From contig BQWY01000001.1 of NCBI GenBank assembly GCA_036984305.1, forward strand, positions 3,121,501-3,185,500: a DNA stretch of 64,000 nt. The letters run 5' to 3'. The stretch is from Nitrospira sp. GTDB taxonomy: Bacteria; Nitrospirota; Nitrospiria; Nitrospirales; Nitrospiraceae. The notes under the pieces were generated by a model, which did no database searches, was not told the origin of the DNA, and worked only from the letters and a program-made list of their open reading frames with translations. Position numbers and translations under genes: made by a program. Below, in pieces: positions 32,376 to 57,132 of the stretch (positions are counted from its first letter, which is position 1; every line of letters starts with the position of its first letter).

Positions 32376-32534
32376 GGGACACTCCAGCGCATAAGAAATT
32401 AAGCCGCGCGGCTGTCTCGCCGGAGTGTATTCTGCAAGATATCGAACTGCAAGAGAATGGCACAGAAATGCGCGTATTTCGCAGCGGTACGGTTAGACTG
32501 ATCGCAACACCCAATTGAGAGTGGAGATCCTCAA

Positions 32535-32693: not shown

Positions 32694-32737
32694 CGCTGTG
32701 CTCCTTGGGTCGACTGCTGATGGGGCATGCAAAAACG

Positions 32738-32754
32738 GTGGTGTCCCCAACGGG
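32738..32754 (+). repeat. left attachment-site repeat (attL)
   Basis: Sequence GTGGTGTCCCCAACGGG, identical to the 3' end of tRNA-Glu at 56869-56885. After this repeat the sequence diverges at once from tRNA (TACATCTC instead of ATTCGAAC), as expected for the island-borne half of an att site. Confidence 0.85.
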
Positions 32755-36903: not shown

Positions 36904-38583
36904 CTACCCGGACAGACATTCTTGCTCCTTGAACAATCGCATTGCCCCATCCAAATCGCCGCGCGCTAGGAGAATCTGGGCCTGGTTCCACAAGGACCGC
37001 CGCAACCCTTCCGGATCGCCCCGTTTCCGGCACAGCCGTTCTTGCTCTTTGAACGCTTGCAGCGCCCCATCCAGGTCGCCCCGCGCCTGGAGAATTTGAG
37101 CTTGGTTCCATAAGGACCGCCGCAGCCCCGCCGGATCGTCCAACTTCCGGCACAGCCGTTCTTGCTCCTTGAACAATACCAGCGCCACATCCAGCTCGCC
37201 CCGCGCCCGGAGAATAAGCGCCTGGTTCCCCAAGCATCGCTGCAGCCACGCTGGATCGCCCAACCCCCGGCACAACCGTTCTTGCTCCTTGAACAATCGC
37301 AGCGCCTCGTCGAGGTCGCCGCGCGCCTGGAGAATTACTGCCTGATTCCCCAAGGACGCCTGCAGCCCTTTCGGATAGCCCAACTTCCGGCACAGCCGTT
37401 CCACTTCCTTGAGCAATCGTAGCGCCCCATCCAGCTCGCCGCACTCTTGTAGAATCAGCGCTTGGTTCACCAACGAGTGTGATAGACCCTTCTGATCGCC
37501 CAGCTTCCGGCACAGTCGCTGTTCTTTCTTGTGAAGCTGCATCGCACCGTCCAGGTCGCCGCGCGCCCGCAGAATCAGCGCCTGGTTCCCCAAGCACCGC
37601 TGCAGCCCCGCCGGATGACCCAACTCCTGGCACAGCCGTTCCACTTCCTTGAGCAGTCGTAGCGCCCCATCCAGCTCGCCGCGCGCCTGGAGAATTACTG
37701 CCTGATTCCCCAAGGACGCCTGCAGCCCCACCGGATCGTCCAACTTCCGGCACAGCCGTTCTTGCTCCTTGCACAATCGCAGCGCCCCATCCAGCTCGCC
37801 GCGCGCCTGGAGAATCATCGCCTGATTTCCCAAGGACCGCGACAGCCATGCCGGATCGCCCAACTCCCGGCACAGCCGCTCTTCTTCCTTGTGAAGCTGC
37901 ATCGCCCCGTCTAGGTCGCCGCGCTCCTGGAGAATCAGCGCCTGGCTCCCCAAGGACACCTGCAGCCCCATCGGATCGCCTAACTCCCGGCATAGCCGTT
38001 CCTGCTCCTTGCACAATCGCATCGCCCCATCCAGCTCGCCGCGCGCCTGGAGAATCAGCGCCTGATTTCCCAAGGACCGCGACAGTCCCGCCGGATCGCC
38101 TAACTCCCGACACAGCCGCTCTTCTTCCTTGTGGACCTGCATCGCCCCGTCTAGGTCGCCGCGATCCTGGAGAATCAGCGCCTGGTTCCCCAAGGAACGC
38201 GACAGTCCCCCTGGATCGCCCAACTCCTGGCATAGCCGTTCTTGCTCCTTGCACAATCTCATCGCTCCATCCAAATCGCCGCGCGTCCGGAAAATCAGCA
38301 CCTGGTTCCCCAAGGACACCTGCTGCCCCGTTGGATCGCCCAACTTCTGACACAGGCGTTCTTGTTCCTTGAACAACCGCATTGCGCCATTCAGGTCGCC
38401 GCGAGCCCGGAGAATCAGGGCCTGGTTCCCCAAAGACGCCTGCAGCCCCGCCGGATCGTCCAAATTCCGGCACAGCCGTTCCACTTCCTTGAGCAATCGC
38501 ATCGCCCCTTCTAGGTCGCCCCGCGCCTGGTGAATCAGGGCCTGGTTCCCCAAGGGGCGCGACAGCCCTGCCGGATCGCCCAA
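36904..38583 (-). repeat. tandem 120-bp repeat array in the STAND gene (14 units)
   Basis: Each 120-bp unit encodes 40 residues with the pattern LGDPAGLSRSLGNQALILQA / RGDLDGAMRLCKEQERLCRE. Units differ at few positions and fall into a small number of subtypes (KEQERLC, KEEERLC, KEVERLC), which recur in mixed order, a sign of unequal crossing-over or gene conversion. A 15th unit lies past the amber codon. Confidence 0.9.
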
Positions 38584-41161: not shown

Positions 41162-44100
41162 TCAAAATCCGAACGAATTGATTTGCCCACAGAAGCGTGT
41201 ATCCATTCCCGTTAGATGCATGCAAATGCCTCGCTCCATGATTTGGAAATCGGATCCAGCTGAAAAGTTCAAATCAAATACCCCGTCCACATAAGGAAGA
41301 AATCCAATGGCCCCATTACTTTTGACTGCAGCCCCCTTTAAGTAGGGAAAGGCAGGATCGGAGTACAACACAAAACCACCTTCTTCGCCCTTTAACACTC
41401 CATACCAAGCATGGCCAAATCGTCCCGCTAACACTGTAGGGAACCGAAGGTGAAGATGAGGCGGGTGGTTAATGTCCACGATATCTGAAATCCAGATGGA
41501 TGCAACCTCCCCCTCATTATCGGCTCCGTAGACTAACGTAAACTCTCCTTTCAAGGGATGGAGAGGTCGACCGTTAGCAAGGAGGATCGGGTGGTAGGCA
41601 AACCCCATACGGGTGTGGATTAATCCTGTGGGACGAGTTCCAAAAATTACTGATGTCATATCACGCCAGAGATTTGCTTCGCGGTCATGTGTGTATATGC
41701 GTATGCGCGACTCATGGTCCGCCAGTGCTAACCAGCTTTGTTTGTTAGTGCTACTTGACGAATCCTCCCCCCAAAACGCCAAAGAGGGGGCAGTTCCATT
41801 GCCCCGGATGGCCCTTCCCGCAATATCATGAACCGTTACTGCGGAGGTGAAATCATTAGGTGTCCTGTCTAACTCAACCCGTGCGTTCATTAATTCTCTG
41901 GTCACTCGATCTGACCAAATGGCCAAAACCACCCGTGCAATACTTCCTTGAGTTCCATCTTGTGCATAGTGAAGATTTAACGTTGGGGCTTGATCAGCCC
42001 GACTTCCAGGAATGATCCCTTGGGGCTTCCATAAGGAAAGTCGGCCATTAGACAGCTGGCCCTCAGAGACGAGTACATGGATTCGATCAACATTCGGCTT
42101 CGTGTAAGTAACGTACATGCGGTTGTTTGCTGAAAAGACACTTACACTCTGTACGAAGCCAGTTTCAGGAATAGTTGAATCCGGTTCCCACTCAGTACAT
42201 CTCGCCTCCGGTCCCCCCCCGCCTTTAAACCCAAGTGGACATCCACTGGTGGGCCATTGTATGCCTTGTAAGCCCCAGCGATATTTGATTTGACCGGCTT
42301 CATTGATATAGAAGAGGTATAAGTAATCTCCCATTCGAGCTAGACTTGGGCTTTTCCCACTGGCGAGAACTTCAGCGTCACGACCATACCGCCCTTGTAT
42401 GTGTGTGTCACAACCCAGAGAACTCAGGTCACCGAACCAATTAACCCGAGCACGGACAGATTGAGAGCAAGCCTGAATAACACCATCTCGGTTCCAATCC
42501 ACCTGACTCCCTACGGTAGGAATGCCAAATCCAGCAAGATGGTCTACTTTGCCACCTGCTAATCCCGCAGCTTCGCACAGGTGTGTTGGGTTGATTACCA
42601 CCCCGGGAAATTCAGTTCCATCTGCAAATCCCACGTCACCCCAGGGGCCGGATGAAGATTGCCCGGCATAACTCATGATAGAAGGGTACACCGTGGAGCA
42701 GTTTATCCCGAGCGGCGCACTTGCACTCCCTCCCTCATGTACTAGCCCCAACACGTGCCCCAGTTCGTGCACAAACGTACGAACATTATTTCGAGGGGCC
42801 CCACCAGCTGGACTAGCTCCAAAAGCATCATTGCCCAATGACTGCCCACCTGTATGTAATATGGCATGGAAAAAGAGTTTTCTTCGTTCGGGAGAGTGAT
42901 ACAACCGTTTATTCGAGTCATTTTGGTCAATTCGGGTTGATCCACCCCAATCCCCGAATAAAGTTTGATTGCCTCTATTCTGTGGAGAAAACCCCATGTC
43001 CAAATGAATAGCAACTCCGCCACGATTATCTAGATTATGCAGGTCCCGCGCGCTCCCCGTTTTGAAGTAATCGCGAATCGCTTCCGCATCAGCTTCCGTC
43101 AAAGGCATATCTGGATACAGCGTTGTGTAATCTACTTCCACAAACACATCCTTGTGAATTGGGCTTGCTCCCCAGCGCGGCAAATATTGAGGAGGGTCCA
43201 CTTGGAGTCCGAACACCTCCCATAGGTCTAGAAGGCCATCTCGGTCTGAATCCTGAAGATTGTGAATGGTGACACACTGTGATTGAGCAAACCGTAAGTC
43301 ACAGGAACCCAGTTCACTTTCGAGTCCAAACCCCAGGCCATCCTTATCCTGATCATTGAATACATCGTTAGCATACAAAAGGCATTGGCCTGATTCTTGG
43401 GTAGCAGAACCAACAACAATTTGAGCGATCCCTGCTTTACTCGCTATCCTTGAGGAACTACCCACGCCCGAATTGTCGTCAAAGGCTATCAGACGTCCCT
43501 GGGAATCCAACCCGAGTATGCGGGTATCTGAAATTCCTCCCGAGCTAAGAGCGGTTTCGTACACGTAATTCGAACTCTGGCCAGAAGGAGGCACATTCAC
43601 AACCGTGCCGCCGACTTGAAAAGGCGAAACCATTTCACTAACTACTCCATCTTCTCGAATGATCAATTTAGCTTCCCCTGGTGAAGTAAATTGCTTGGTA
43701 TGAACAAACAATGTATGCCACCCCCCAGCCCTTTCCGGGACGGTATAGCGAAGTTCTGAATAGTTTCTATTCTGAGGTCCTCGATTGAAGGCCACATCCG
43801 CGCTCTTGCTCCTGTTCCATAAGTGCAATACAGGCGCAAGGCTTTCGCTTAATCCTGCTATTTGAAAAGAGTAGGTCTTCCCCCCTGCTAGCCAAACCCC
43901 CTTATGAATCATTGGGCTCACGAGTAACGGCCACCGATAAGGGCCATCTGCTGCATAAAGCCATCGTTGGTTGGGGCCGTCATGACACGACCAATGCTGT
44001 ATCCTCAGTCCATCAATTGGTTGGCCGCCTGGAACATCAAGGCATTTACCAGAGTGTCGGGAGACGATCCGCACGCCCCCTAAGGTGTCATTGATCGGTT

Positions 44101-44482
44101 CAAAACTAAACAACTGATTATCTTGTCCATGACATCGATACTGTTGAAGACCTCCGTCGTTTGCGCCTCCCACTCGAACATCGAGACAATGGTTACTGTT
44201 TTCATTGCGAATTAAGAAAAACCCAGGAACATTCGATCGTTCCTTTCGCCAACGCTGGTTTCCACCTCCATGACAACGGTATTGATTGACATCGGCTGCG
44301 GGTAATCCGCTCCCATCTGCAACATCCAAACATTTTTCCGTCGTCAGGCTTACGATCGGAGCACCGACATACCCCAAGGCGGGAAACGGGAAGAAGGAGA
44401 CGGAGCCAATCAGCCAAAGGACGAGCGTCCCCGCGAAAACTGCTTCAACTTCGTAAGCATTTCTCTCCTGTACACGAGGCAT
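41162..44482 (-). CDS. exported ricin-lectin zinc metalloprotease
   Basis: A 1106-residue secreted protein. Residues ~15-38 form a signal peptide or anchor (VFAGTLVLWLIGSVSFFPFPA). Residues ~40-170 are a ricin B-type lectin with three QxW-like repeats (NQRWRKE, NQLFSFE, NQRWLYA) and KCLDV motifs. A beta-rich segment follows, then DSDRDGLLDLWE (calcium-binding type) and a metzincin-like catalytic site HELGHVLGLVH (about residue 570) with a Met-turn candidate SIMSYAG. The last ~400 residues contain repeated beta-strand blocks like a propeller. GC is clearly lower (about 47% in a sampled 60 bp) than in neighbours. A longer start at 44572 lacks an RBS. Probably an extracellular glycan-binding protease. 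Confidence 0.82.
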   Translation of the reverse strand: MPRVQERNAYEVEAVFAGTLVLWLIGSVSFFPFPALGYVGAPIVSLTTEKCLDVADGSGLPAADVNQYRCHGGGNQRWRKERSNVPGFFLIRNENSNHCLDVRVGGANDGGLQQYRCHGQDNQLFSFEPINDTLGGVRIVSRHSGKCLDVPGGQPIDGLRIQHWSCHDGPNQRWLYAADGPYRWPLLVSPMIHKGVWLAGGKTYSFQIAGLSESLAPVLHLWNRSKSADVAFNRGPQNRNYSELRYTVPERAGGWHTLFVHTKQFTSPGEAKLIIREDGVVSEMVSPFQVGGTVVNVPPSGQSSNYVYETALSSGGISDTRILGLDSQGRLIAFDDNSGVGSSSRIASKAGIAQIVVGSATQESGQCLLYANDVFNDQDKDGLGFGLESELGSCDLRFAQSQCVTIHNLQDSDRDGLLDLWEVFGLQVDPPQYLPRWGASPIHKDVFVEVDYTTLYPDMPLTEADAEAIRDYFKTGSARDLHNLDNRGGVAIHLDMGFSPQNRGNQTLFGDWGGSTRIDQNDSNKRLYHSPERRKLFFHAILHTGGQSLGNDAFGASPAGGAPRNNVRTFVHELGHVLGLVHEGGSASAPLGINCSTVYPSIMSYAGQSSSGPWGDVGFADGTEFPGVVINPTHLCEAAGLAGGKVDHLAGFGIPTVGSQVDWNRDGVIQACSQSVRARVNWFGDLSSLGCDTHIQGRYGRDAEVLASGKSPSLARMGDYLYLFYINEAGQIKYRWGLQGIQWPTSGCPLGFKGGGGPEARCTEWEPDSTIPETGFVQSVSVFSANNRMYVTYTKPNVDRIHVLVSEGQLSNGRLSLWKPQGIIPGSRADQAPTLNLHYAQDGTQGSIARVVLAIWSDRVTRELMNARVELDRTPNDFTSAVTVHDIAGRAIRGNGTAPSLAFWGEDSSSSTNKQSWLALADHESRIRIYTHDREANLWRDMTSVIFGTRPTGLIHTRMGFAYHPILLANGRPLHPLKGEFTLVYGADNEGEVASIWISDIVDINHPPHLHLRFPTVLAGRFGHAWYGVLKGEEGGFVLYSDPAFPYLKGAAVKSNGAIGFLPYVDGVFDLNFSAGSDFQIMERGICMHLTGMDTRFCGQINSFGF

Positions 44483-45158
44483 GTTGAACCTCTTAACCAA
44501 AAGAAGGGATAGGTTTTGTTCCACAGAGGAGTCCGAGCACGTTGCCTCCTCCCTCGAGAAGGTCTTACTCAAATCAGCCCACGTCTTTCGCGATGGGGCT
44601 CGTCAAGACCAAAAAGGCACCCGGCTCACAGGTGCTCAAGGCATCGGTAAGGTCCGCAATATTGATGCCGTCTGCGCAACCTTGCGGCGAGCGACTAGCT
44701 GCTGGAGCGATGTGCTAGTAATGAGAAGGACATACGTTGACACGGCTGGGCGGAGGCATCGAGATCATGCTAGAAGAATGCCTAGGTACAGCGCGATACA
44801 GAGATGTATCTGACCGGATACGCACTGCGTTACAGTAGTATCCGATGAGATACATGGCTGCTTCCGTCGTTTCTGGGGGAGACGTCACAACCCAGCGTGC
44901 ATCTCGGCGATGGGCGATAAGATTGACTCGTAATTGAGTGGGCAGTCAGCCAATGCTGGTTCAATGGCCGCTTTAGAGCCGCACAGCGAACTGGACTGCA
45001 GAGGGACGAGCATGAGGGTCTTCGATGTGTAACTGGATCGATTGACGGATTCCTGCTCGATGAACGGCCCGCACTCCGCACCAGTAGTCTTTCAGCTATC
45101 GAGCCTCATCACGATCCCCTCCCCGCCGAAGAGACCATGGATGAAGATGAACAGGCTG
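44483..45158. other. intergenic region, no gene seen
   Basis: About 680 bp upstream of the metalloprotease and downstream of the membrane-protein gene. A 110-codon frame at 44481-44813 (plus) begins inside the metalloprotease start and has no coding character. The metalloprotease promoter should lie here. Confidence 0.4.
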
Positions 45159-46793
45159 TTAGGGCATCGATCCATGCCCAATCAGTCGTTGTAAGGATTC
45201 ATACAGGGCGGCGAGCTCTGTTGAGGATTGTCTGGCGAGGTGCCTGACCTGTAGCGGCTCGGCGTCAGCCTTTCCGCAAGATCGGGCTTGCTGCCGGATG
45301 GTTTCCTCAAGCAGCGACTTATTCGTGGTGTGATCGACGACCAAGAGGGTCCTTGCCAAAAGCTCCTGGGCAATGAGTTCTTGAAGCTCGAACGAGCATC
45401 CCGAATTGCTCTCGCTGAAGCCGCGCAGGTCCATCAGCACCAGATCGCTCCCCTCCAGCAACATGGTGAGCGTATGGCGCCAGGTATCTTCCCGGCAAAA
45501 GAATTTGGTTGTCCGATAACGGCCGTCCGGGTCCTGTAACCCGTCGATGGCGGCGGTTGCCTGCCGTCCCTGCTCTTCATCCGCGATGAAGCGGCTACTC
45601 AAGCGGCCGCTCACGAAACTGATGACGTCTCCGGGATTGACGGTCCGCATCGCGAGGTCACCGCCCGCGATCATCATGACCGGTCCCACAAACCGCCAGC
45701 GCTCGGCGACGGAGTCGAACAACACTTCAGTCCTGTGCTGAAAGCCGAACACACGCAACAGGAGAAGAGTCGGCCCGCGGTGGCCCCTCGGAAGCCGGAA
45801 GACGCGCAATCCCAGTTCCACGGTCCCGCGATAGCCGACAAAGGCGAGGAGGCCGGCCAGTCCAGCCCAGCCGAAATCACTTGCGAGCTGCGAGCTGAAC
45901 TGAAAGCTGACTATCAGCCACCATGAATCGATTACGAGCTGCACATCGCTGAAACGCTTCCGCTCGTACCAGGACGCCAGTTGGCGTAGACCAACCCAAC
46001 AGCCGTATCCGATCGGCAGCGCGGCGACGAGATACCAGAGGGCGTACGCCCGTGAGCCGCCAAACAGAAGCCATGCGGCCTTGGGATTGGCTTGGAGCGC
46101 GGCGAGATAGAGGTCGCGCGCGAACAGCGAGCCGAAACTAAACACGAGGAGTCCGGCCATGACGAGGGGCGAGACAGGACGGAGGCGCCGGTTGCCCGTC
46201 ACCAGGATGATGAGGTACGGGAGCCAGAACACTTGTCCCAGGAACTGAAGAAAGTATCGAGTGTTCTTCAGTGGCGAGGTATCGACATGCCCGAGAATGG
46301 AGGATGAGAACCATGACCATCCGCCGACGAGGACTGCTCCAAGAAGCAGGTAGAGCAGGAGAAACAGGATGTTGCGGTGCTGCGGCAGCGCGAGCAGGAT
46401 CACAGTAATTGGAACGACGGGCCAGGCATAGCTATACCAACTGACGAAGGCTCCCAGCAGGCTGAGATCGAACTTCATCGAGAGCGCGAACAGGAAGGCC
46501 ATGAGAAAGGCGGCGACAAGGCTCGCCAGCCCATAGACAAGAACCAAACGCCGCTTGGTTGCCGTGACTGACTCCGTGGGTGTGCCATCGGAGCTGTGCA
46601 TCAAGGCCCGGTTGTCGGCTTGTAATTCTGTCTTAGCTGCAACAAGCGGTCTGGCGATGCCGGCCCCAACCTGCCGCATGCTGCGCGAGACGGCCCGCCG
46701 GTATCCGGCAAGCAGGACCAGTGACGTTGGGACCGTAATCAGAATGGCCTCCAAAAAATACATCCATAATTTGCCGGGCGCTTGGCCTGTCAT
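45159..46793 (-). CDS. polytopic membrane protein with cytosolic effector-like C-terminal domain
   Basis: A 544-residue protein. The first ~350 residues hold about nine hydrophobic helices (YFLEAILITVPTSLVLLAGY; LASLVAAFLMAFLFALSM; FLLLYLLLGAVLVGGWSWF). The soluble last ~190 residues form an alpha/beta domain with ERWRFVGPVMMIAGGDLAMR, PGDVISFVSGRL, REDTWRHTLTMLLEGSDLVL and MDLRGFSESNSGCSFELQEL. The D-LVLMDLRGF...-G-x-x-FEL arrangement recalls TIR or nucleoside deoxyribosyltransferase-like Rossmann folds, but I cannot assign it. It starts at 46793, 104 bp from the divergent gene at 46898. A membrane-linked signalling or effector role is inferred. Upstream frame to 46955 overlaps that neighbour and is rejected. 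Confidence 0.7.
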   Translation of the reverse strand: MTGQAPGKLWMYFLEAILITVPTSLVLLAGYRRAVSRSMRQVGAGIARPLVAAKTELQADNRALMHSSDGTPTESVTATKRRLVLVYGLASLVAAFLMAFLFALSMKFDLSLLGAFVSWYSYAWPVVPITVILLALPQHRNILFLLLYLLLGAVLVGGWSWFSSSILGHVDTSPLKNTRYFLQFLGQVFWLPYLIILVTGNRRLRPVSPLVMAGLLVFSFGSLFARDLYLAALQANPKAAWLLFGGSRAYALWYLVAALPIGYGCWVGLRQLASWYERKRFSDVQLVIDSWWLIVSFQFSSQLASDFGWAGLAGLLAFVGYRGTVELGLRVFRLPRGHRGPTLLLLRVFGFQHRTEVLFDSVAERWRFVGPVMMIAGGDLAMRTVNPGDVISFVSGRLSSRFIADEEQGRQATAAIDGLQDPDGRYRTTKFFCREDTWRHTLTMLLEGSDLVLMDLRGFSESNSGCSFELQELIAQELLARTLLVVDHTTNKSLLEETIRQQARSCGKADAEPLQVRHLARQSSTELAALYESLQRLIGHGSMP

Positions 46794-46897
46794 GGCGTAT
46801 TCTCGAGTCAGATGAGGTACAGTCCGGTGATCATGTGCCTGCCAGAGGTTCGGATCGCCACAGTTGAAAGCCGTGCGATTCCCTTGCTGAGAGACTG

Positions 46898-47659
46898 ATG
46901 GCACCTTCGTCGACCATGAAGACCCGCATTCGTGGACTCTTCCTGTTTCTCGCAATCGTCTGGTCCATCGCGCTTGCCTTCCTGCTGCTCGAAAACTACA
47001 GCCAGGAGCTGGTGGATTGGGCCTTCAGGTCCGGCACAATTACAGCCGACCTCGGGATGCCAAGAGCGTCACCGGAGGTCGTGGCCAAGTGCGCCGCTGC
47101 GGTTCGAGCTGCGATCGAGTCGGAACAGGTGGATTTTGACCGTAGGGAGTTGCAACTGGCGAAGCTCGCAGCCTGGAAAATGGGATATGGCTTTGGTCTT
47201 GCCGTTGGGCTTGGACAGGCAGGAGCCCTAGACGTAGTGCAACGGAACGAATCCTTGCGCGTCATCGAACCCATGGTCCAGGCGCTGCGCGTGCCGGCTC
47301 CTTTGCCTCCGGCCTTGGCAACCTCAGTGACCGGACTACCCGAGTACGGACAATCGATTGAGGATGATGCGACCTGCACGGCTTTGTTCCTCGAAGAGCA
47401 GTATGGGGCGAGCGTCCGTCACATCTATCAACTCGGTGCGTTAACGAGTTTTGCCGCCGTGTACCGGATCGCCTGTCCCCAGTGCGGCGTGCTGTTCGTG
47501 CCGCAGATCAGCCACCATGCCAAAGCAGCTGGCCTCCCGGAAGAAGCGTGGCAGGCGTTCGCACAGTTCCCTCCGAACGTTCCGAACATGGAGGCGCGAC
47601 GCAAAAAAGCTACTGAGATCGCCCAAGGCCTGGAAGAGTTCATCAAACGAATGGAATGA
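46898..47659 (+). CDS. membrane-anchored protein of unknown function
   Basis: A 253-residue protein with an N-terminal transmembrane helix (LFLFLAIVWSIALAFLLLE, residues ~14-32) and an extracytoplasmic-looking helical domain. Cys residues occur as ATCTALF and IACPQCGVLF, the latter a CxxC. Much of the sequence is Ala/Leu-rich helix (VVAKCAAAVRAAIESEQVDF; GYGFGLAVGLGQAGALDVVQ). No family recognised. Divergent from and close to the large membrane protein gene, so shared regulation and joint function are likely. GAGAG precedes the ATG; the second ATG at 46916 is an alternative start. Confidence 0.6.
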   Translation: MAPSSTMKTRIRGLFLFLAIVWSIALAFLLLENYSQELVDWAFRSGTITADLGMPRASPEVVAKCAAAVRAAIESEQVDFDRRELQLAKLAAWKMGYGFGLAVGLGQAGALDVVQRNESLRVIEPMVQALRVPAPLPPALATSVTGLPEYGQSIEDDATCTALFLEEQYGASVRHIYQLGALTSFAAVYRIACPQCGVLFVPQISHHAKAAGLPEEAWQAFAQFPPNVPNMEARRKKATEIAQGLEEFIKRME

Positions 47660-48071: not shown

Positions 48072-51000
48072 CTAGGCTGAGCTCCTTGTATTCTCCATCA
48101 AGGAACGAACGGTGTCGATAATCTCGGACTCCGTCTTATCCAGTAATTGGAGAAGGTCCTTGTAGTTGTTCAGAACAGTCTGTGAACTCGGATGCTTGGT
48201 TCCCAAAGTCACAAGGAGCGAAGTTAGCGCCCGCTCGTAGAGCGGCTCGGCCTTCGGGTAGGCGCCCTGGGTGCGGTAGAGTTCCGCCAGGTTATTGAGA
48301 CTCCTCGCCACGTCGGGATGCTCGGGCCCCAGTGCGTGCTCGTAGATGGCGAGCGCCCGCTCGTAGAGCGGCTCGGCCTTCGGGTAGGCGCCCTGGGCGC
48401 GGTAGAGTTCCGCCAGGTTATTGAGACTCCTCGCCACGTCGGGATGCTCGGGTCCCAATGCCTGCTCGCAGATCGCCAGCGCCCGTTGGAGGAGCGGCTC
48501 GGCCTTCGGGTAGGCGCCCTGGGCGCGGTAGAGTTCCGCCAGGTTATTGAGACTCCTCGCCACGTCGGGATGCTCGGGCCCCAGTGCGTGCTCGTAGATG
48601 GCGAGCGCCCGCTCGTAGAGCGGCTCGGCCTTCGGGTAGGCGCCCTGGGCGCGGTAGAGTTCCGCCAGGTTATTGAGACTCCTCGCCACGTCGGGATGCT
48701 CGGGTCCCAATGCCTGCTCGCAGATCGCCAGCGCCCGGTGGTAGAGCGGTTCGGCCTTCGCATAGGCCCCCTGGGTGTGGTAGAGCAGTGCCAGGTTATT
48801 GAGACTCCTCGCCACGTTGGGATGCTCGGGTCCCAGTGCGTGCTCGTAGATGGCGAGCGCCCGGTGGTAGAGCGGTTCGGCCTTCACATAGGCCCCCTGG
48901 GTGTGGTAGAGCAGTGCCAGGTTATTGAGACTCCTCGCCACGTCGGGATGCTCGGGTCCCAATGCCTGCTCGCAGATCGCCAGCGCCCGTTGGAGGAGCG
49001 GCTCGGCCTCGGCATACTGACCCTTGGCATAAAGCAGCAACCCAGCTTGACTCATCAATAGAGCCGTGGGCTCTCTAATGCCTGCCGCATCAGCATGCGC
49101 AGAGACCGCTCGCACGTGCGGAAGCAAAGGGGCCAGCATTGGCCAGTCACCTGGATTCGTGGGATCGAATCCCGCGAACGCGGTATCGAGCCAGTGTAGA
49201 ACTTCGAAGAGCCCGTCCTGTTCGCGATCTTCACGCATGCTTCGACGCGTGACCTCCTGCACCAGCCGATGGACGGTAAAAGTGGGGCTGCCGACGGCGC
49301 GAGCTACCAGCGAATAGGACTCTAGTTCAGCCAGAGATTCGAATGGATCGACTTGTCCCTCGCCCCCGGGTATTGACACCTCCAACAGGGATTCGGGGAT
49401 TGGATCGGGCGCGATCCAGGCCAGACGTCGCAGTAGGTGCTTGGCTGAAGCCGTGAGCCTGTCAAATGATGTCTGCCAGCTAATCGCAATGGACTGGGGG
49501 TACTGCATGAGGCGCCCGTCATACCAGGTGAGTACCTTGTCGCGCTGGCTTTGCCAATGGACCAGATATTGATCAAAGCTCAGGCGCCGTTGTGCGATAT
49601 AAGCGCTGGCTTGTTCAAGTGCGAGAGCCAGGCAACCCAGTTTGTCCGCTAGCACTCGCGCGGTGTCGGGATCGGCGGGGTGTTTGCGCCGTTTCGCATC
49701 GGTGCGGGCAAGAAGGTAGTCAGTTGCAGCTTCGGGGGCTAGAAGATCCAGCGCCACCGGCGCAAGGCCGGCACTCCAATCAGCCAGCCGGCTTGTGATC
49801 AATAGATGGCCGCCAACGAGTTGCGGAAGCAGAGCTTCAACCGCGGCGGCAGCCGGTTTCGAATCGACTTGGTCGAAAATCAACAGCCAGCCAGAATGTT
49901 GCCGCAGCCAGTGCAGTACCGCCTCGTACTGTTTGACTTCTTCCCCTTCCAACTTCTCAGGGATATTCAAAACATTCGGAGCGCTTAGAGCCGCCACACC
50001 GCTCCGTAAGGCCTCTGCACTGTCGGCACGAACGAAAAGCAGCGCGGTGTAGTCATCGGCATGCCGCCAGGCATACTCAAGCGCGAGCCGCGTCTTGCCA
50101 ACACCACCTAGGCCGATCAAGACTCGGGCCTCGACGGAGGTGGTGTGGCTATCCGGGATCGGGCCGAGACTTTGGCCGAGGTCATTAAGCGTCGCCTCAC
50201 GGCCCTTGAAGAGCTCGCCGAGGCTGAGAAAGGGAAGATTAGCCGGCCTAGTTAGCGGAGTATCAAGCTCAAGGATATCTTGCAACTCGGAGCGCAAAAC
50301 CTCGATCGCCAGACTGTTGGATGAGGCAAAGCGAAACGGATAGCACTCTACCTCGGCGAGGCGCTGCAGATGCGCCTGCTGTGCGGCGCGCTGCTCCGGG
50401 ATCAGTTCGAAGCGCTCATCGCGCGGCGCATTGTTGTCCGGTGCACCGATGACGAGCGGTTTGCCGTGGTAGAGTGCCAGCCAGGCCTCCCATTGGGTGT
50501 AGGACAACGCCGGGGCCTGGGGGGCGAGGAAAGGCGCCACCGGCGCGAGTTTCTGTCCCAGGTCGGGATAATACTGCCGAATCACTGCCAGCGATGATGC
50601 CTGGGCCAGCGGGCCGGTCATATCTCCTACAATGTGGATGACCGCGTCGCACTGTCTGATATAGTCGTCCAGCAGGTCCAGCGTTTCTGTGCCAGTCACG
50701 ATGAAATCTTCCTGCACCGCGATCGAGATGTTTGGGCGTGTGAGGGTGCGACGCAGCACCTCGCGGTAGCTGCGGAACTCGGCGCTGACACAAGACAAGA
50801 ACATTTTTCTCTGCGCCTGGCTCGCATGCCGTTTGCTCCAGAAGTCTTCGCTGATCTTGATGAACTTTATCTCTTCAACTGTGAATAAAGGTGCGTGGGC
50901 AACGAGCAGTTGTTTAGCTTCCTGTGATACGGGGCGCGCAAGTAGCAGACTGTCGGGTCTGCCATTGCGTTGCCAGTGCTCGAATGCCGTCTGTATCCAA

Positions 51001-52412
51001 TCGCGCTGTTCCAAGACGACTTTTTCCTCAGCGGCCCAGTCATTGATCTGCCGCCAGCGCGCAAGCCAATCCCCGTCTGCTAGCTTCACCGCCAAGCTGC
51101 TGCTGCTCTCCTTAACTTGAACCTTGCGAAGAACACTGGCCCTAACGAAACGTTCCATTAAAGATCGCTCTTCTGCCGACACGTGCTGAAGTGGCAGCAG
51201 GAGGCGTTTGAGACCAGGCGCTTCTTGACCTCGAGGCACGCGCACCAGACGTAGCAGCAGGCGCTTAGCCAGGTCGAGTTGCTCCACAGTGAGCTGACCC
51301 AGGACCGTGTTGGCACCGCGCAGCAACGCGTCCATCTGGCTTTCCTCTATCTTGGGGGTCTGTGTGGTCGCGGCCGCCTCAGCCGACAGTTCCTCCACTT
51401 GCTCGTAAGCATGCACCAGTTGTTGCTTTTTATCGGGTGCGAGCGGCAAATCGTAGCGACTAATATCGCCATCCGTGACGTAGGAGGCTAGACGCAGGAC
51501 TGACACCATGGGCAGCTTTGGATCATCAGGATTAAAGATCAACGGCGAAAGTACTTCCTCGTAGTTCAAAAAGGCGTTATAGGGCACCTCCACACCGGCC
51601 CAATAAGCGTTATGCTCACTTTTCTGCAAATCTTCGAGCAGGGGAGCGAACAACTTCCGAGCAAAAGCCTGGCGCCGCTCGAGTTTAAGAACCTCGAAGG
51701 GGTCGGCTCGCGAGGGGACGGGAAATACTCGGAAAGTTTCGTTGGAGAATTGGCCATAGTCGCGCCTGCGTATTTCTATAGCTGACCGGGCGACCGCAAG
51801 AGCGCCGTGGATGCTCTGATTGTTATAGGTAAACATGATGACCAGGGTGTCGGGCATCTGCACGGTGCAGATACCTGCGGTGTCGCTCACCCCAGTGCGA
51901 CTATCAATAAGGACGTAGTCATAGTCTCGGCGCAGGCGCTTTTTGATCGCCTCGAGGAAGGCACCGCCTCCGAGGCGCTCGTAGAACGTATCCCAGTCGA
52001 AGGCGTGCAGTTTGGTGGCATAGGCAGGCCCTTGCCTGCCAGCTGGCACCAAATCAATGCGTCCTCCTTCGGGAAAGCCGTCAAAGTTAATACCCTGCAG
52101 ATAGGGAGAGAGATCGGTTAGCGACTGGTACCAATTATCCCCCTCGTCTCCCTCAGGCGGCTGGATTGCCTGGTCGGAGTAGTCCACCAGCAGGTCGATC
52201 AGGCCGCGGGAGGTGGCCAGTTCCTTGTCTGCCAGAAAGGGATGGAAGTAGCGGTGTAGCCCAGGTGCTTCCAGATCCCAGTCCACAATTAGGACGCGCC
52301 TTCGGTTCGCGGCCAGCACCCAAGCCAGATTGGCCAACGCCATGGAGCGGCCGGTGCCACCCTTGTACGAGTAGAAAGTGAAAATGCGGCCGCCACCGAT
52401 CGGACTACTCAT
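48072..52412 (-). CDS. FxsT-like multidomain STAND protein (ParA, nSTAND1-like tail, DUF4062-like, NB-ARC, TPR)
   Basis: A 1446-residue protein. Residues ~8-330: MinD/ParA-type ATPase with deviant Walker A YKGGTGRSMALAN, VDWDLEAPGLHRYF and DSRTGVSDTAG. Residues ~365-535: helical tail as after nSTAND1 NTPases (WLARWRQINDWAAEEK; AFEHWQRNGRPDSLLLARP). Residues ~535-715: DUF4062/TIR-like domain (RKMFLSCVSAEFRSYREVL; TLDLLDDYIRQCDAVIHIVG). Residues ~730-1100: NB-ARC NTPase with P-loop GLGGVGKT (767-774), Walker B LLIFDQVDS, then a helical/winged part. Residues ~1110-1420: kinesin-light-chain TPR array. This matches FxsT of actinobacterial FxSxx-COOH loci. Its ATG lies 8 nt inside the FxsC-like gene, so the two are made together. 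Likely a sensor/regulator for the TIR partner. Confidence 0.85.
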   Translation of the reverse strand: MSSPIGGGRIFTFYSYKGGTGRSMALANLAWVLAANRRRVLIVDWDLEAPGLHRYFHPFLADKELATSRGLIDLLVDYSDQAIQPPEGDEGDNWYQSLTDLSPYLQGINFDGFPEGGRIDLVPAGRQGPAYATKLHAFDWDTFYERLGGGAFLEAIKKRLRRDYDYVLIDSRTGVSDTAGICTVQMPDTLVIMFTYNNQSIHGALAVARSAIEIRRRDYGQFSNETFRVFPVPSRADPFEVLKLERRQAFARKLFAPLLEDLQKSEHNAYWAGVEVPYNAFLNYEEVLSPLIFNPDDPKLPMVSVLRLASYVTDGDISRYDLPLAPDKKQQLVHAYEQVEELSAEAAATTQTPKIEESQMDALLRGANTVLGQLTVEQLDLAKRLLLRLVRVPRGQEAPGLKRLLLPLQHVSAEERSLMERFVRASVLRKVQVKESSSSLAVKLADGDWLARWRQINDWAAEEKVVLEQRDWIQTAFEHWQRNGRPDSLLLARPVSQEAKQLLVAHAPLFTVEEIKFIKISEDFWSKRHASQAQRKMFLSCVSAEFRSYREVLRRTLTRPNISIAVQEDFIVTGTETLDLLDDYIRQCDAVIHIVGDMTGPLAQASSLAVIRQYYPDLGQKLAPVAPFLAPQAPALSYTQWEAWLALYHGKPLVIGAPDNNAPRDERFELIPEQRAAQQAHLQRLAEVECYPFRFASSNSLAIEVLRSELQDILELDTPLTRPANLPFLSLGELFKGREATLNDLGQSLGPIPDSHTTSVEARVLIGLGGVGKTRLALEYAWRHADDYTALLFVRADSAEALRSGVAALSAPNVLNIPEKLEGEEVKQYEAVLHWLRQHSGWLLIFDQVDSKPAAAAVEALLPQLVGGHLLITSRLADWSAGLAPVALDLLAPEAATDYLLARTDAKRRKHPADPDTARVLADKLGCLALALEQASAYIAQRRLSFDQYLVHWQSQRDKVLTWYDGRLMQYPQSIAISWQTSFDRLTASAKHLLRRLAWIAPDPIPESLLEVSIPGGEGQVDPFESLAELESYSLVARAVGSPTFTVHRLVQEVTRRSMREDREQDGLFEVLHWLDTAFAGFDPTNPGDWPMLAPLLPHVRAVSAHADAAGIREPTALLMSQAGLLLYAKGQYAEAEPLLQRALAICEQALGPEHPDVARSLNNLALLYHTQGAYVKAEPLYHRALAIYEHALGPEHPNVARSLNNLALLYHTQGAYAKAEPLYHRALAICEQALGPEHPDVARSLNNLAELYRAQGAYPKAEPLYERALAIYEHALGPEHPDVARSLNNLAELYRAQGAYPKAEPLLQRALAICEQALGPEHPDVARSLNNLAELYRAQGAYPKAEPLYERALAIYEHALGPEHPDVARSLNNLAELYRTQGAYPKAEPLYERALTSLLVTLGTKHPSSQTVLNNYKDLLQLLDKTESEIIDTVRSLMENTRSSA
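48210..49010 (-). repeat. tandem 126-bp (252-bp higher-order) repeat array in the FxsT-like gene
   Basis: Six to seven 42-residue TPR units (pattern GPEHPDVARSLNNLAELYRA / QGAYPKAEPLYERALAIYEH). They alternate between two subtypes, one with LAICEQAL and one with LAIYEHAL, so the nearly identical DNA period is 252 bp. The two halves are close to identical at base level, which points to recent duplication. The last unit is degenerate. Confidence 0.88.
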
Positions 52413-53697
52413 TTCGCGGCTCCCTCGCACCCGGTCCCATAATGATGGGACGGCCTATGCCGCCTGGTACGTTTCGTACCGGGGCGCTACGGCGCATCTC
52501 GGCCTGAATTTGGTTGAGCACCGTACGAAGTGTGTCACGCAGTTCATCCAACGAGGCTACGTCTCTACAGTAGTAGGGGGAGGACTGGGCGTACTGACAG
52601 CGGAAGCGCAGCACGTCGCGAATCACCTGATCGACTCTAGACTTGTTGGCAGCCAGCTCAGGGTCGCGCGGGTTCCAGGGTAGCAACACAGCACAGTTGT
52701 TGAAGTTCTGCTCGTCGAACTCACGGAATATTTCCTGATAATCTGGGCTAGCGTAGAGGGACCAGCGGTCTACAAACACAACCACTGGCTTACCTTCCTT
52801 GAAGGCAGCGCGGACTTCATCTGCCAGCCCCTTGGAAAACTGGGCCTGGTCACTGTCAAAGTCCAGGTCAGCGTCAGAAACGATGTGGGCGGCCAGCGCC
52901 CCGATGCGTCGCTGCAGGTCCGGGTAGAAAGGCTTCCAGTCTGGGCCACCAGCGTCCTGGTAGGGATTACGGTTGCGACCGTCCGATAGGTGCTCCGGAT
53001 GAAGGGCAGCGAAAACAAAGCGCACATGCCGACGGAAACCCTGCCGCGCGGAAGCGTGAACCGCCGGTCTAGTCGCTGGCAGTTCTAGAGGGAACGCAGG
53101 GGCGATTTCATTAAGTGTGGGCATCGGGTTCAGGTGTGGCAGCTCCATCCCATCGAGCGCGTCCGTTATTCCCTGGGCAAAGCCGCGGACGAAATCCCAA
53201 TAGAGGTCGTTGTAGTCGGCCTTCTTCCGCACCATGTGCTCCAGGCCCTGTTGGTTGATGTGCGAATCCTCTTCACGCCAGGTATATTGCACCATTCTCA
53301 CCGCCGCGCTGACATAGTTGGGCAGGGCAAGTTTCTTGTCCTTGCGAAGGGGGATCCAAACTACTGGTCGGATCACCGCCGGCTGGATCCCACCGTGCAG
53401 TTTGGCGTACGCCTCGCGGCGAAGTTGGAAGCTCTGCCATTCCTTTCCACAATACTCGCTATTGAAATAGGCTGGTGAGTACAGGGGTATGAGCACACGA
53501 CTCTCCTGCATCGCGGCCAACAAGGCGTCATCCCAGTTGTTGCCCGTCTCGATGCTTTCCTGGTCGAAAAACGACAGATTCTCGTATTTACCCAAACCGC
53601 GCAATTTGCGCACTTCCTCACCAAGGTCACTGAGGAACTCACGCATGAATGGGCCGAAATCACTGCGGCGGTAGCTGAAGAATATTTCGTAGGGCAT
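52405..53697 (-). CDS. TIR-domain protein with FxsC-type C-terminal domain
   Basis: A 430-residue protein. Residues 1-~135 form a TIR domain: opening EIFFSYRRSD, box 2-like SFFDQESIETGNNWDDALL, and SPAYFNSEYCGKEWQ, where Glu86 holds the position of the catalytic Glu of NAD-cleaving TIRs (WCxxE). Residues ~215-400 match the FxsC C-terminal domain (RRHVRFVFAALHPEHLSDGR; WKPFYPDLQRRIGALAAHIV; KPVVVFVDRWSLYASPDYQE; DEQNFNNCAVLLPWN). In Actinobacteria FxsC is encoded with FxsT. Here it starts the unit: its stop overlaps the FxsT-like start. Predicted NADase effector or NAD-derived signal producer held in check by its partner; activity is inference. Confidence 0.85.
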   Translation of the reverse strand: MPYEIFFSYRRSDFGPFMREFLSDLGEEVRKLRGLGKYENLSFFDQESIETGNNWDDALLAAMQESRVLIPLYSPAYFNSEYCGKEWQSFQLRREAYAKLHGGIQPAVIRPVVWIPLRKDKKLALPNYVSAAVRMVQYTWREEDSHINQQGLEHMVRKKADYNDLYWDFVRGFAQGITDALDGMELPHLNPMPTLNEIAPAFPLELPATRPAVHASARQGFRRHVRFVFAALHPEHLSDGRNRNPYQDAGGPDWKPFYPDLQRRIGALAAHIVSDADLDFDSDQAQFSKGLADEVRAAFKEGKPVVVFVDRWSLYASPDYQEIFREFDEQNFNNCAVLLPWNPRDPELAANKSRVDQVIRDVLRFRCQYAQSSPYYCRDVASLDELRDTLRTVLNQIQAEMRRSAPVRNVPGGIGRPIIMGPGAREPRNE

Positions 53698-55242: not shown

Positions 55243-56910
55243 GTGATCGCCGCCATTTACGCCCGCAAATCCACTGAGCAGTACGGAGTCGCCGACGAGC
55301 AGAAGTCCGTCGCGCGGCAGATTGAACACGCGCACGCGTACGCCGCTCGCAAAGGCTGGACCGTGGGCGAGGCGTACGTGTATGCCGACGACGGCATCTC
55401 CGGAGCCGAATTCGTGAAACGGCCAGGTTTCTTTCGACTGATGAATGCCCTGAAGCCGTCACCTCCTTTTCAGGTTCTCGTCATGTCTGAGGAATCGCGG
55501 TTAGGCCGCGAATCCATCGAAACTGCCTACGCATTCAAGCAAATTATGGACGCCGGCGTGCGAGTGTTCTTCTACCTGGAGGACCGAGAACGCACACTCG
55601 ACAGCGCCATGGACAAAATGATGCTGTCCCTGGCTAATTTTGCCTCAGAGATGGAGCGAGAACGGGCCAAGCAGCGTACGTACGACGCGCTCTTGCGGAA
55701 GGCGAAGGCCGGCCAGGTTACCGGAGGGAAAGTCTACGGCTATAACAATCGTGACGTCCTCTCATCAGATGGGCACCGACTCTACGTCATGCGGGTGATC
55801 AACGAACAAGAAGCCGCGGTGGTTCGCCAAATCTTCGAATTCTACGCAGGTGGACTTGGGATTACGCGCATCGCGCGACAGTTAAACGATCAGCACCTGT
55901 CGGCCCCGCGACAGAGCCCGCGTGGATGGGCCCCGACGGCCATCCGGGAAATTCTTCACCGGACTCTCTATCGAGGCGAGGTTGTCTGGAACCAGTCACA
56001 GAAGATCATTCAAGGTGGAACCAAGAAGCGGCAGCGTCGGCCGGAGACAGAGTGGCTCCACGTCGAAGCGCCGGATCTGCAGATCATCCCTACACCGCTC
56101 TGGCAGACAGTCCAGGCTCGGCTCGCCCGCTGGAAAGGGCCTAGCTGCGACCGACAGAGACCGCGCCCAGCCCGCGATCTCGACTCCCCCTACCTACTCT
56201 CCGGGCTAGCCCGTTGCGCTCATTGCGGGGGACCGATTGAATCAATCGGACGGGACTACAGCCGACGCCAGGGTCGATTTTACGGTTGCGCATATCATCG
56301 CAAGCGTGGAAACGCAATCTGTTCACGAGCCTACCGTATAGACCAACAGCAGCTTGATCGCGTACTCCTCGAAGCGATCTGCCGAACCCTCGATGATCGA
56401 ATGTTGGAAGTGGCAGTAGAGAAGGCTCTGAGGGAGCTTAGGACGGGGCACAATGCACGCTGGGACCGGGAGACGGCCATTACACGGGAATTGTCCCTCA
56501 TTGAGGCCCACGAACGTAATTTGGTGAATGCCATTGCCGAAGGGCAGCGGGCAGCTCCCCTACTCGCCAAACTCCAGGAAGAAGAAGCACAAAAGGCAGC
56601 CCTCACGTGCGAGCTCGAACAGCTCACGCAAGGAGCAAAAGTGCTCCTATTAGACCAACGCCGACTGAAGCAGGAGCTGATGCAACGAGTCGCCGATCTA
56701 CGAGGGTTGCTTGAACGGCAACATGCTCAGGCCCGACGGATCCTGCAGACCTTGCTCGGGGGACCGTTGATGCTGGAGCTGACTGACGAGAAGGGAAAGA
56801 AAACCGTGCATGTAACAGGGGCAGGATCCTACCTCAAACTACTTTCTCCCTCCCTGGTTCCCCCAAGTGTGGTGTCCCCAACGGGATTCGAACCCGTGTT
56901 GCCGGCTTGA
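55243..56910 (+). CDS. large serine recombinase (island integrase)
   Basis: A 555-residue site-specific recombinase. Catalytic domain residues ~1-150: nucleophile Ser in YARKSTEQY, Arg-rich active site SEESRLGRESIE, and MMLSLANFASEMERERAKQR. Recombinase domain residues ~170-290 (GYNNRDVL; RQLNDQHLSAPRQSPRGWAP; REILHRTLYRGEVVWN). Zinc ribbon ~330-380 (LARCAHCGGPIES; RFYGCAYHRKRGNAICSRAY), then a coiled coil (residues ~430-510). GTG 55243 has RBS GAGGAGAG and begins the family's first strand; the frame upstream to 55168 is unlikely. The last ~14 codons are antisense to tRNA-Glu, so the C-terminus (VVSPTGFEPVLPA) is an integration product. Probably the enzyme that moved the island. Confidence 0.92.
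   Translation: MIAAIYARKSTEQYGVADEQKSVARQIEHAHAYAARKGWTVGEAYVYADDGISGAEFVKRPGFFRLMNALKPSPPFQVLVMSEESRLGRESIETAYAFKQIMDAGVRVFFYLEDRERTLDSAMDKMMLSLANFASEMERERAKQRTYDALLRKAKAGQVTGGKVYGYNNRDVLSSDGHRLYVMRVINEQEAAVVRQIFEFYAGGLGITRIARQLNDQHLSAPRQSPRGWAPTAIREILHRTLYRGEVVWNQSQKIIQGGTKKRQRRPETEWLHVEAPDLQIIPTPLWQTVQARLARWKGPSCDRQRPRPARDLDSPYLLSGLARCAHCGGPIESIGRDYSRRQGRFYGCAYHRKRGNAICSRAYRIDQQQLDRVLLEAICRTLDDRMLEVAVEKALRELRTGHNARWDRETAITRELSLIEAHERNLVNAIAEGQRAAPLLAKLQEEEAQKAALTCELEQLTQGAKVLLLDQRRLKQELMQRVADLRGLLERQHAQARRILQTLLGGPLMLELTDEKGKKTVHVTGAGSYLKLLSPSLVPPSVVSPTGFEPVLPA
56869..56885 (+). repeat. right attachment-site repeat (attR)
   Basis: GTGGTGTCCCCAACGGG, the reverse complement of the tRNA-Glu 3' end (CCA, discriminator A, acceptor strand and first T-arm bases), plus one base. 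Identical to 32738-32754. Confidence 0.85.
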
Positions 56911-56947
56911 AAGGCCGGCGTCCTAGGCCAGGCTAGACGATGGGGAC
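56870..56947 (-). tRNA. tRNA-Glu (anticodon UUC)
   Basis: On the minus strand: acceptor GTCCCCA pairs with TGGGGAC, D arm TCTAGCCTGGCCTAGGA, anticodon stem CCGGC/GCCGG around CTTTCAA with UUC at 56909-56911, T arm ACGGG-TTCGAAT-CCCGT, discriminator A and encoded CCA. Complete and apparently functional; its 3' end serves as the integration site of the island. Confidence 0.96.
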
Positions 56948-57132
56948 GGTCCCTGTGGTCGGACGGGCATGGTAACGGAATGGGGTTCGATGAGTCAACG
57001 GGATTGGAGCCAAGACAACCGTCCCTGGGTACCGGGCAGCCGCTTGTGTGCGCGACAACTCTCAGGCTATGCTGCACGATTGAGTGTCCTATTGAATGTT
57101 GAATGTCATGAGGTCACACAGCGGTGTGTGCG

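What the first reader, a model, noticed from the sequence alone, without database searches (positions are those of the whole stretch)
48072..53697. FxsC/FxsT-like TIR-STAND pair without the FxSxx-COOH peptide machinery
A TIR protein with an FxsC-type C-terminal domain and a ParA-NB-ARC-TPR protein built like FxsT overlap by 8 nt. In Actinobacteria these two accompany a FxSxx-COOH precursor peptide (FxsA) and a radical SAM enzyme (FxsB). I searched the island and saw neither a CxxxCxxC radical SAM gene nor a short ORF ending F-x-S-x-x. Here the pair sits on a mobile island in a non-actinobacterial genome. I infer a self-contained sensing/effector system, with the TIR Glu86 as NADase residue and the STAND protein as trigger.
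Basis: partly seen in the sequence, partly recalled or inferred. Interest (0 to 1): 0.88.

Follow-up and report, generated by a model that had tools for sequence, protein, structure and literature searches.

The report
TIR enzyme paired with fused sensor
On a mobile piece of DNA sit two overlapping genes, an enzyme of the TIR family that probably destroys the cell fuel NAD and a large sensor protein that looks like two proteins fused end to end; the pair resembles a system of actinobacteria but lacks its signal peptide, and is probably a virus alarm.

Summary
The TIR gene (52405-53697) passes the FxsC C-terminal model (82.8 bits, cut-off 55) but misses the N-terminal one (105.8, cut-off 130); its neighbour passes FxSxx_TPR (371.7, cut-off 300). 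They overlap by 8 nt on a 24.1-kb island in tRNA-Glu (17-bp repeat, empty site in a relative). No FxsA or FxsB reaches its cut-off in the genome.

(1) The constant core is FxsC plus a KGGTGR ParA-like protein, adjacent in 64 of 68 loci; FxsB lies near in 56 of 63 actinobacterial loci and 0 of 5 others. (2) The second protein looks like a fusion: residues 7-533 are 69% identical to a Rhodocyclaceae KGGTGR protein; 536-1424 align with residues 2-904 of a free-standing 929-aa Methylobacterium protein. It carries a DUF4062 domain, a family recently reported (preprint) as TIR-like NADases. (3) The label FxsT is non-specific: five of five inspected plasmid loci with such NB-ARC-TPR proteins show no annotated FxsA, FxsB or FxsC within 8 kb.

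Best reading: a two-gene NADase alarm in which the KGGTGR module couples an interchangeable STAND sensor to a TIR effector. Linkage and modularity are shown; activity is inferred. Not an FxSxx-COOH system. New variant of a known kind.

The parts
52405..53697 (-). FxsC-like TIR protein, 430 aa: TIR domain (about residues 1-180) and an alpha/beta C-terminal domain (about 225-406)
   Evidence: low-confidence model: N-domain resembles TIR (best Z 10.0), C-domain flavodoxin-like
53440..53442 (-). codon of Glu86, candidate TIR catalytic glutamate in SEYCGKEW
   Evidence: invariant in 4 of 4; Glu in 65 of 68 FxsC rows
48072..52412 (-). composite KGGTGR / nSTAND1-like / DUF4062 / NB-ARC / TPR protein, 1446 aa, overlaps the TIR gene by 8 nt
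51414..52412 (-). KGGTGR ParA/MinD-like module (residues 1-333); Walker A reads KGGTGRS, Arg22 where ParA-type P-loops have Lys (recalled)
   Evidence: NF047398 160.5 bits; Arg22
50814..51332 (-). region similar to the C-terminal part of nSTAND1 (residues 361-533), shared with L002 and L003
   Evidence: PF20703 37.8 bits for the region alone; also in L002, L003
50808..50813 (-). apparent fusion junction (residues 534-535): L002 homology ends at residue 533, Methylobacterium homology begins at residue 536
50343..50807 (-). DUF4062 TIR-like domain (about residues 536-690); candidate Glu642 in SYTQWEAW
   Evidence: PF13271 28.1 bits when residues 525-735 are searched alone (cut-off 24.7), 24.0 in the whole protein; motif identical in the Methylobacterium protein
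49233..50210 (-). NB-ARC-type STAND NTPase region (about residues 735-1060) with P-loop GLGGVGKTR and DUF7779
   Evidence: NF040586 best stretch 735-1107; DUF7779 45.5 bits
48226..49009 (-). TPR array of near-identical 126-bp units (6.2 copies, 91% matches)
   Evidence: TPR_12
32738..32754 (.). left attachment-site copy, 17-bp direct repeat
56869..56885 (.). right attachment-site copy at the 3' end of tRNA-Glu
   Evidence: tRNA
56870..56947 (-). tRNA-Glu (ttc), integration target
   Evidence: same tRNA at the empty site of L166
55168..56910 (+). large serine recombinase of the island
   Evidence: Resolvase, Recombinase and Zn_ribbon_recom Pfam domains

Best explanation
A mobile two-gene NAD-depletion alarm. 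The conserved unit is a TIR enzyme (FxsC type, Glu86) with an overlapping gene for a ParA/MinD-like module whose P-loop Lys is Arg (KGGTGR). That module acts as a docking platform and is fused to an interchangeable sensor. Here the sensor is a complete DUF4062-NB-ARC-TPR protein of a kind that exists free-standing elsewhere. Steps: (1) shown: the two genes overlap, and KGGxGR proteins adjoin FxsC in most loci; (2) shown: between this locus and its nearest relative the sensor half is swapped at one protein boundary; (3) inferred: the TPR array binds an invader product and the NB-ARC domain oligomerises; (4) inferred: the oligomer, through its KGGTGR and TIR-like (DUF4062) parts, gathers FxsC TIR domains; (5) inferred: gathered TIRs, possibly with DUF4062, hydrolyse NAD and stop or kill the cell. 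The FxsA peptide and FxsB enzyme would be an actinobacterial add-on, not part of the core.
For: A KGGxGR domain begins within 241 nt downstream of FxsC on the same strand in 64 of 68 full-length FxsC loci; in the 4 without, FxsC is part of a protein of 1024-1566 aa. FxsB in the fetched stretch in 56 of 63 actinobacterial and 0 of 5 other loci. No FxsA/FxsB over cut-off in the window genome, G295, G296, G719 or plasmid records W01, W02, while both models pass in G297 and G1047 (in G296 only 150 of 428 FxsA candidates were scored). One DNA block of 70.6% identity between window and L002 runs from the FxsC start to about residue 480 of the second protein; protein identity of 69% runs to residue 533, then residues 536-1424 align with 2-904 of a free-standing 929-aa protein. 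Glu86: Glu in 65 of 68; the 3 exceptions (L077, L092, L094) each have an adjacent extra TIR that keeps it. In 57 FxsT-type partner rows the column that matches Glu86 never holds Glu (the column match is by eye and by one profile alignment), consistent with a scaffold role. DUF4062 is a TIR-like NADase with antiphage function in PMC13174449 (preprint; abstract, passages and part 1 of Results read). Related pairings in the own phylum: L217, a TIR-like gene (24.3 bits, under the cut-off of 28) overlapping a KGGTGR-TPR gene; L215, a DUF4062 protein adjoining a KGGVGR-TIR-nSTAND1-FGE protein.
Against: No activity, phage challenge or expression was measured. The FxsC model is poor (mean pLDDT 56.3). 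Only 5 non-actinobacterial loci were found, and loci are related. The profile match between FxsC TIR and partner TIR is weak (probability 41%), and an acidic residue (E 30, D 15 of 57) stands two columns on. The FxsC_Nterm model is missed; the DUF4062 match is marginal (24.0 whole, 28.1 alone), and that of the Methylobacterium protein is under cut-off (21.1). Matches to PADLOC models are weak or to candidate systems. Three loci of the G1047 family with a separate FxsC/KGG pair (L101, L106, L111) have no FxsB in the stretch, but L111 has one about 16 kb off, so distance does not prove independence there.
Confidence: 0.55

Rival explanations
1. It is a degraded FxSxx-COOH system: a transferred actinobacterial cluster that lost FxsA and FxsB and keeps the same peptide-gated logic, perhaps answering a peptide made elsewhere.
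For: FxsC_Cterm and FxSxx_TPR models pass; the non-actinobacterial FxsC rows group with a Frankia FxsC that has FxsB beside it, support 86 without star.
Against: No FxsA/FxsB over cut-off genome-wide; the sensor half is closer to free-standing proteins than to an FxsA/FxsB-cluster FxsT; all 5 non-actinobacterial loci lack FxsB in the stretch; the FxsC of window and L002 are sisters (100, starred), so the peptide-less form itself has spread.
Confidence: 0.2
2. The sensor half is an autonomous DUF4062-STAND defence protein (Swarozyc-like NADase) whose fusion to the KGGTGR module is incidental; FxsC is a separate effector.
For: Residues 536-1424 correspond to nearly a whole free-standing protein, from its residue 2; DUF4062 proteins act alone in PMC13174449.
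Against: A KGGxGR partner adjoins FxsC in 64 of 68 loci and is fused to several different tails, which speaks for coupling.
Confidence: 0.15
3. A developmental or physiological signalling module rather than defence.
For: FxsC_Cterm is common in one actinobacterial family (85 of 150 genomes, centre included), which I take for Streptomycetaceae (inferred), rich in developmental regulation (recalled).
Against: Rare elsewhere: without the centre genomes 0 of 294, 1 of 397 (under cut-off) and 1 of 246; carried on an integrase island and on 4 plasmid records.
Confidence: 0.1

Closest known systems
FxSxx-COOH (FxsA/FxsB/FxsC/FxsT) cluster; peptide-processing systems of Kaur et al. 2020 (PMC7159879, passages read)
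   Same: FxsC-type TIR and a downstream protein with a MinD/ParA-like domain, NB-ARC ATPase and TPRs; the paper describes, for stand-alone actinobacterial peptide-processing systems, an AP-ATPase with an inactive MinD/ParA-like domain.
   Different: No FxsA peptide and no FxsB radical SAM enzyme; the sensor half carries DUF4062 and an nSTAND1-type region and is closer to free-standing proteins.
Swarozyc (DUF4062 TIR-like NADase; preprint PMC13174449; abstract, passages and part 1 of Results read)
   Same: A DUF4062 domain that keeps a Glu in SYTQWE.
   Different: Here DUF4062 lies in the middle of a STAND-TPR fusion with an N-terminal KGGTGR module and a partner TIR gene; the Swarozyc studied there is one protein with an auxiliary domain.
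Free-standing protein of Methylobacterium indicum plasmid pVL1_5 (annotated fxsT, 929 aa)
   Same: 41.5% identity over residues 536-1424 of the window protein, starting at its residue 2.
   Different: No KGGTGR module; no FxsC gene annotated beside it; its DUF4062 match is under cut-off (21.1 against 24.7).
Rhodocyclaceae MAG locus L002
   Same: FxsC 68% identical and KGGTGR protein 69% over residues 7-533; the two genes also overlap (4 nt).
   Different: After that point a tail with a hydrophobic segment and TPRs instead, and a separate TIR-STAND-TPR gene follows.
PADLOC candidate PDC-M28B
   Same: The KGGxGR region matches its models (91.0 bits).
   Different: Only that region matches; the library describes no function.

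Membership tests
FxSxx-COOH system | FxsC C-terminal domain over curated cut-off | tested here: met
   82.8 bits, cut-off 55
FxSxx-COOH system | FxsC N-terminal (TIR) model over curated cut-off | tested here: not met
   105.8 bits, cut-off 130
FxSxx-COOH system | FxsT model over curated cut-off | tested here: met
   371.7 bits, cut-off 300; but the model also passes on 3 of 3 free-standing plasmid proteins tested with no Fxs genes annotated nearby
FxSxx-COOH system | FxsA precursor peptide (TIGR04268) | tested here: not met
   best in genome 18.6 bits, cut-off 28, 132 of 132 candidates scored; that frame does not end in FxSxx; no plausible ORF in the island
FxSxx-COOH system | FxsB radical SAM/SPASM enzyme (TIGR04269) | tested here: not met
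   best in genome 58.6 bits, cut-off 370
Swarozyc / DUF4062 NADases | DUF4062 domain | tested here: met
   28.1 bits for residues 525-735 alone (cut-off 24.7); 24.0 in the whole protein, just under
Swarozyc / DUF4062 NADases | conserved catalytic Glu | tested here: inconclusive
   SYTQWEAW is shared with the Methylobacterium protein; its equivalence to E97 of the preprint was not aligned, and an alignment with two other DUF4062 proteins did not place it
Swarozyc / DUF4062 NADases | C-terminal auxiliary winged domain that binds phage portal | not tested
   no search made; the tail here is NB-ARC-TPR
STAND NTPase sensors | NB-ARC/AP-ATPase core with repeats | tested here: met
   FxSxx_TPR stretch 735-1107, DUF7779, TPR arrays; Pfam NB-ARC is not among the 25 of 32 families shown
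Thoeris (TIR ThsB with ThsA) | ThsB-type TIR with a ThsA partner | tested here: inconclusive
   ThsB1 model E 0.0013 only; ThsA was not sought by itself

The most novel reading that the evidence does not exclude
The KGGxGR ParA-like module is a general coupling adaptor of bacterial immunity: it plugs otherwise autonomous sensors (STAND-TPR, nSTAND1, FGE-sulfatase, membrane-TPR) into TIR-family NADases, and the actinobacterial FxsA/FxsB peptide is a later layer on this core. The window protein catches such a plug-in as a fusion of a complete DUF4062-STAND protein, giving one system two NADase domains.
Probability: 0.3. Interest if true: 0.78.

Novelty: new variant of a known kind. Interest (0 to 1): 0.6.

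Why it matters
FxsC and FxsT are named after a peptide system, yet in the non-actinobacterial loci seen here they occur without the peptide. That makes a clean test possible: does the TIR plus KGGTGR core work alone? The fusion junction also marks where a sensor can be exchanged, and it links a newly described NADase family (DUF4062) to a TIR partner.

Tried and rejected
Rejected: FxsA/FxsB elsewhere in the genome (nothing over cut-off; the best FxsA-model frame, 72 residues, ends NAVQPLAH). Rejected: a long att repeat (searches found one copy of the tRNA end; the shorter 17-bp repeat was found). Led nowhere: viral contigs (37 pattern matches, 0 relatives); phages (no match); megablast of the island against plasmids (no match); structure models of FxsC and of residues 1-728 of the partner (mean pLDDT 56.3 and 52.0) are too weak for active-site claims, and the fold list for FxsC holds TIR, dehydroquinase, receiver and ParA-like entries. 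MAFFT of the DUF4062 region with two other DUF4062 proteins did not place the Glu. Considered: developmental role, incidental neighbour, decayed Fxs cluster (see rivals). Literature searches listed no paper that by title, abstract start or the passages I read describes an FxsC-KGGxGR core without the peptide; most subscription papers and the bioRxiv library are not held.

Limits of the counts. Survey counts include the centre genome, which was chosen because it carries FxsC. The 60 loci L069-L128 come from 58 genomes and were picked by me down the ranking out of more than 100 rows; L083 (3.9-kb contig) gave no full-length FxsC and was left out of the 68, L004 duplicates L037, and L039 (22.3 bits) was not counted. 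The family of G1047 is unnamed; I take it for Streptomycetaceae (inferred). The Fisher value (p about 5e-5) used 56 of 62 and left out the Streptomyces plasmid L006; with it the count is 56 of 63. Loci are related, so that p is only indicative. FxsA-like ORFs by a C-terminal pattern: 45 of 61 loci of that family; the pattern missed the Frankia FxsA that the model found. The 57 partner TIR rows are those KGGxGR proteins with the strict motif outside window, L002, L003, L004, L007; three loci give two rows each, at least one row (second L114) is misaligned, and I tested only L070, L038 and L101 against the Pfam TIR models.
Full report
What is there. The TIR protein passes the FxsC C-terminal model and misses the cut-off of the N-terminal one; the second protein passes FxSxx_TPR, and its first 200 residues pass the KGGVGR ATPase model. 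Pfam adds TIR_2 to the first, and nSTAND1 (C-terminal part), DUF4062 (marginal), DUF7779 and many TPRs to the second. Its P-loop reads KGGTGRS.

The island. In a relative (G250) the chromosome blocks that flank the island stand next to each other around the same tRNA-Glu: window 30561-31275, tRNA 56869-56948, window 57252 onward. A 17-bp repeat stands at 32738-32754 and at the tRNA end, 56869-56885; the longest match of the tRNA gene inside the region is 16 nt, while the largest in 300 block shuffles was 14. A large serine recombinase gene ends in the tRNA. Between the repeats the island is about 24.1 kb. About 1.4 kb left of the left repeat (31276-32737) has no good match in G250 either, so the left edge rests on the repeat.

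No peptide machinery. In the island 0 of 421 ORFs have CxxxCxxC, and the only F-x-S-x-x ending is an antisense 43-aa ORF. In the whole genome the best FxsB match has 58.6 bits against a cut-off of 370, the best FxsA match 18.6 against 28; G297 and G1047 gave both over cut-off in the same searches. G295, G296, G719 and the plasmid records W01 and W02 gave neither over cut-off; in G296 only 150 of 428 FxsA candidates were scored.

Survey. FxsC_Cterm at E 0.001, centre genome included: 1 of 295 genomes of the own phylum, the one being the window's own; 2 of 398 in the phylum of G295, only G295 itself over cut-off; 2 of 247 in that of G296, only G719 over cut-off; 3 of 149 in that of the Frankia genome G297; 85 of 150 in the family of G1047. 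I compared 68 loci with full-length FxsC: 61 of the G1047 family, Frankia L037, a Streptomyces plasmid L006, the window, L002 (Rhodocyclaceae MAG), L003 (Acidobacteriota MAG), L007 (Rhizobium plasmid) and L038 (G719). In 64 a KGGxGR domain begins within 241 nt downstream. In the other 4 (L006, L122, L123, L124) FxsC is part of a long protein. FxsB in the fetched stretch: 55 of 61, Frankia yes, L006 no (56 of 63), and 0 of 5 for window, L002, L003, L007 and L038. With wider flanks L111 has FxsB about 16 kb off; L101 and L106 have none within about 29 kb.

Modular partner. The KGGxGR protein continues in different ways: TIR-NB-ARC-TPR (L070, L038), nSTAND1-like region then hydrophobic segment and TPR (L002), nSTAND1-like region (L003), FGE-sulfatase (L007). 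Window and L002 share one DNA block (70.6%, window 53702 to 50972) and protein identity of 69% to residue 533. From residue 536 the window protein aligns instead with a free-standing Methylobacterium plasmid protein, from its residue 2 to 904 of 929, 41.5%. The two homologies meet within three residues. I read this as a fusion of two complete modules.

The name FxsT. A search with the whole partner protein matched 79 plasmid records (38 of them Streptomyces). I inspected five: Methylobacterium, Prosthecochloris, Acaryochloris and Streptomyces (annotated fxsT) and Sinorhizobium (not so annotated). None shows an fxsA, fxsB or fxsC annotation within 8 kb (the plasmid gene tables are incomplete). 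The Prosthecochloris stretch does hold a nif11-type peptide and its radical SAM maturase, a different peptide family. The FxsT model passes on 3 of 3 of these tested. So passing it does not show an FxSxx system.

Active sites. Glu86 is Glu in 65 of 68 FxsC. L077, L092 and L094 have His or Gln there, and each has a further TIR next door with WCxxEW. In 57 FxsT-type partner rows the matching column never holds Glu, though an acidic residue stands two columns on in 45. A profile alignment of the two TIR sets puts Glu86 opposite that column, with the following Trp opposite Trp, but its probability is only 41%. This fits an enzyme (FxsC) and a scaffold (partner TIR). In the window the partner has DUF4062 in that place; its SYTQWEAW motif is shared with the Methylobacterium protein. 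A preprint reports DUF4062 as a TIR-like NADase used against phages (PMC13174449; abstract, passages, part 1 of Results).

Wider kin. In the own phylum 9 of 290 genomes hold a KGGVGR domain over cut-off, 10 places. Of 9 further neighbourhoods fetched, L217 has a TIR-like gene (under the Pfam cut-off) overlapping a KGGTGR-TPR gene, and L215 a DUF4062 protein adjoining a KGGVGR-TIR-nSTAND1-FGE protein; in the other 7 my FxsC profile found nothing and I did not search the neighbours' families. So pairing with TIR-family proteins is probably not limited to FxsC.

History. The FxsC tree joins window and L002 (100, starred), although L002 is a Rhodocyclaceae MAG and G295 was not among the own-phylum genomes drawn; I infer transfer. 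The grouping of all non-actinobacterial rows with Frankia is weak (86, long branches) and cannot say whether the peptide was lost or never there.

Prior work. Kaur et al. 2020 (PMC7159879, passages read) describe FxSxx peptide-processing systems, some stand-alone in actinobacteria with an AP-ATPase carrying an inactive MinD/ParA-like domain. The passages I saw do not describe a peptide-less form, and my searches listed no other account.

Conclusion. It is a two-gene TIR/STAND alarm that may work like, but is not a member of, the FxSxx-COOH system. The new points are the constant FxsC plus KGGxGR core, the exchangeable sensor, and the DUF4062-STAND fusion. Function is inferred throughout.

Noticed in passing
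window 36904-40668 (-): A second DUF4062-AAA-TPR protein (1254 aa) on the same island, with about 15 copies of a 120-bp TPR unit (76% matches); likely another defence gene.
   Followed up: partly
window 41162-44572 (-): Large protein with ricin-type lectin and a reprolysin-like metallopeptidase match, in DNA of lower GC than its surroundings.
   Followed up: no
window 45159-46955 (-): 598-aa ORF that looks like a membrane protein, without a family match over cut-off; its start overlaps the opposite-strand ORF 46898-47659.
   Followed up: no
L215 4562-9924: Own-phylum locus with a DUF4062 protein adjoining a KGGVGR-TIR-nSTAND1-FGE-sulfatase protein, another TIR-family/KGG pairing.
   Followed up: partly
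L077, L092, L094: FxsC copies that lost the TIR glutamate sit beside an extra TIR that keeps it, as if one replaced the other.
   Followed up: partly
L219 818-3750: Diversity-generating retroelement (Avd, reverse transcriptase) with formylglycine-type proteins 4-7 kb from an fxsT-labelled gene on a Prosthecochloris plasmid.
   Followed up: no
L006 6416-11116: Streptomyces plasmid protein in which TPRs and FxsC are one 1566-aa chain, next to an AAA ATPase gene, without KGGxGR or FxsB in the stretch.
   Followed up: no
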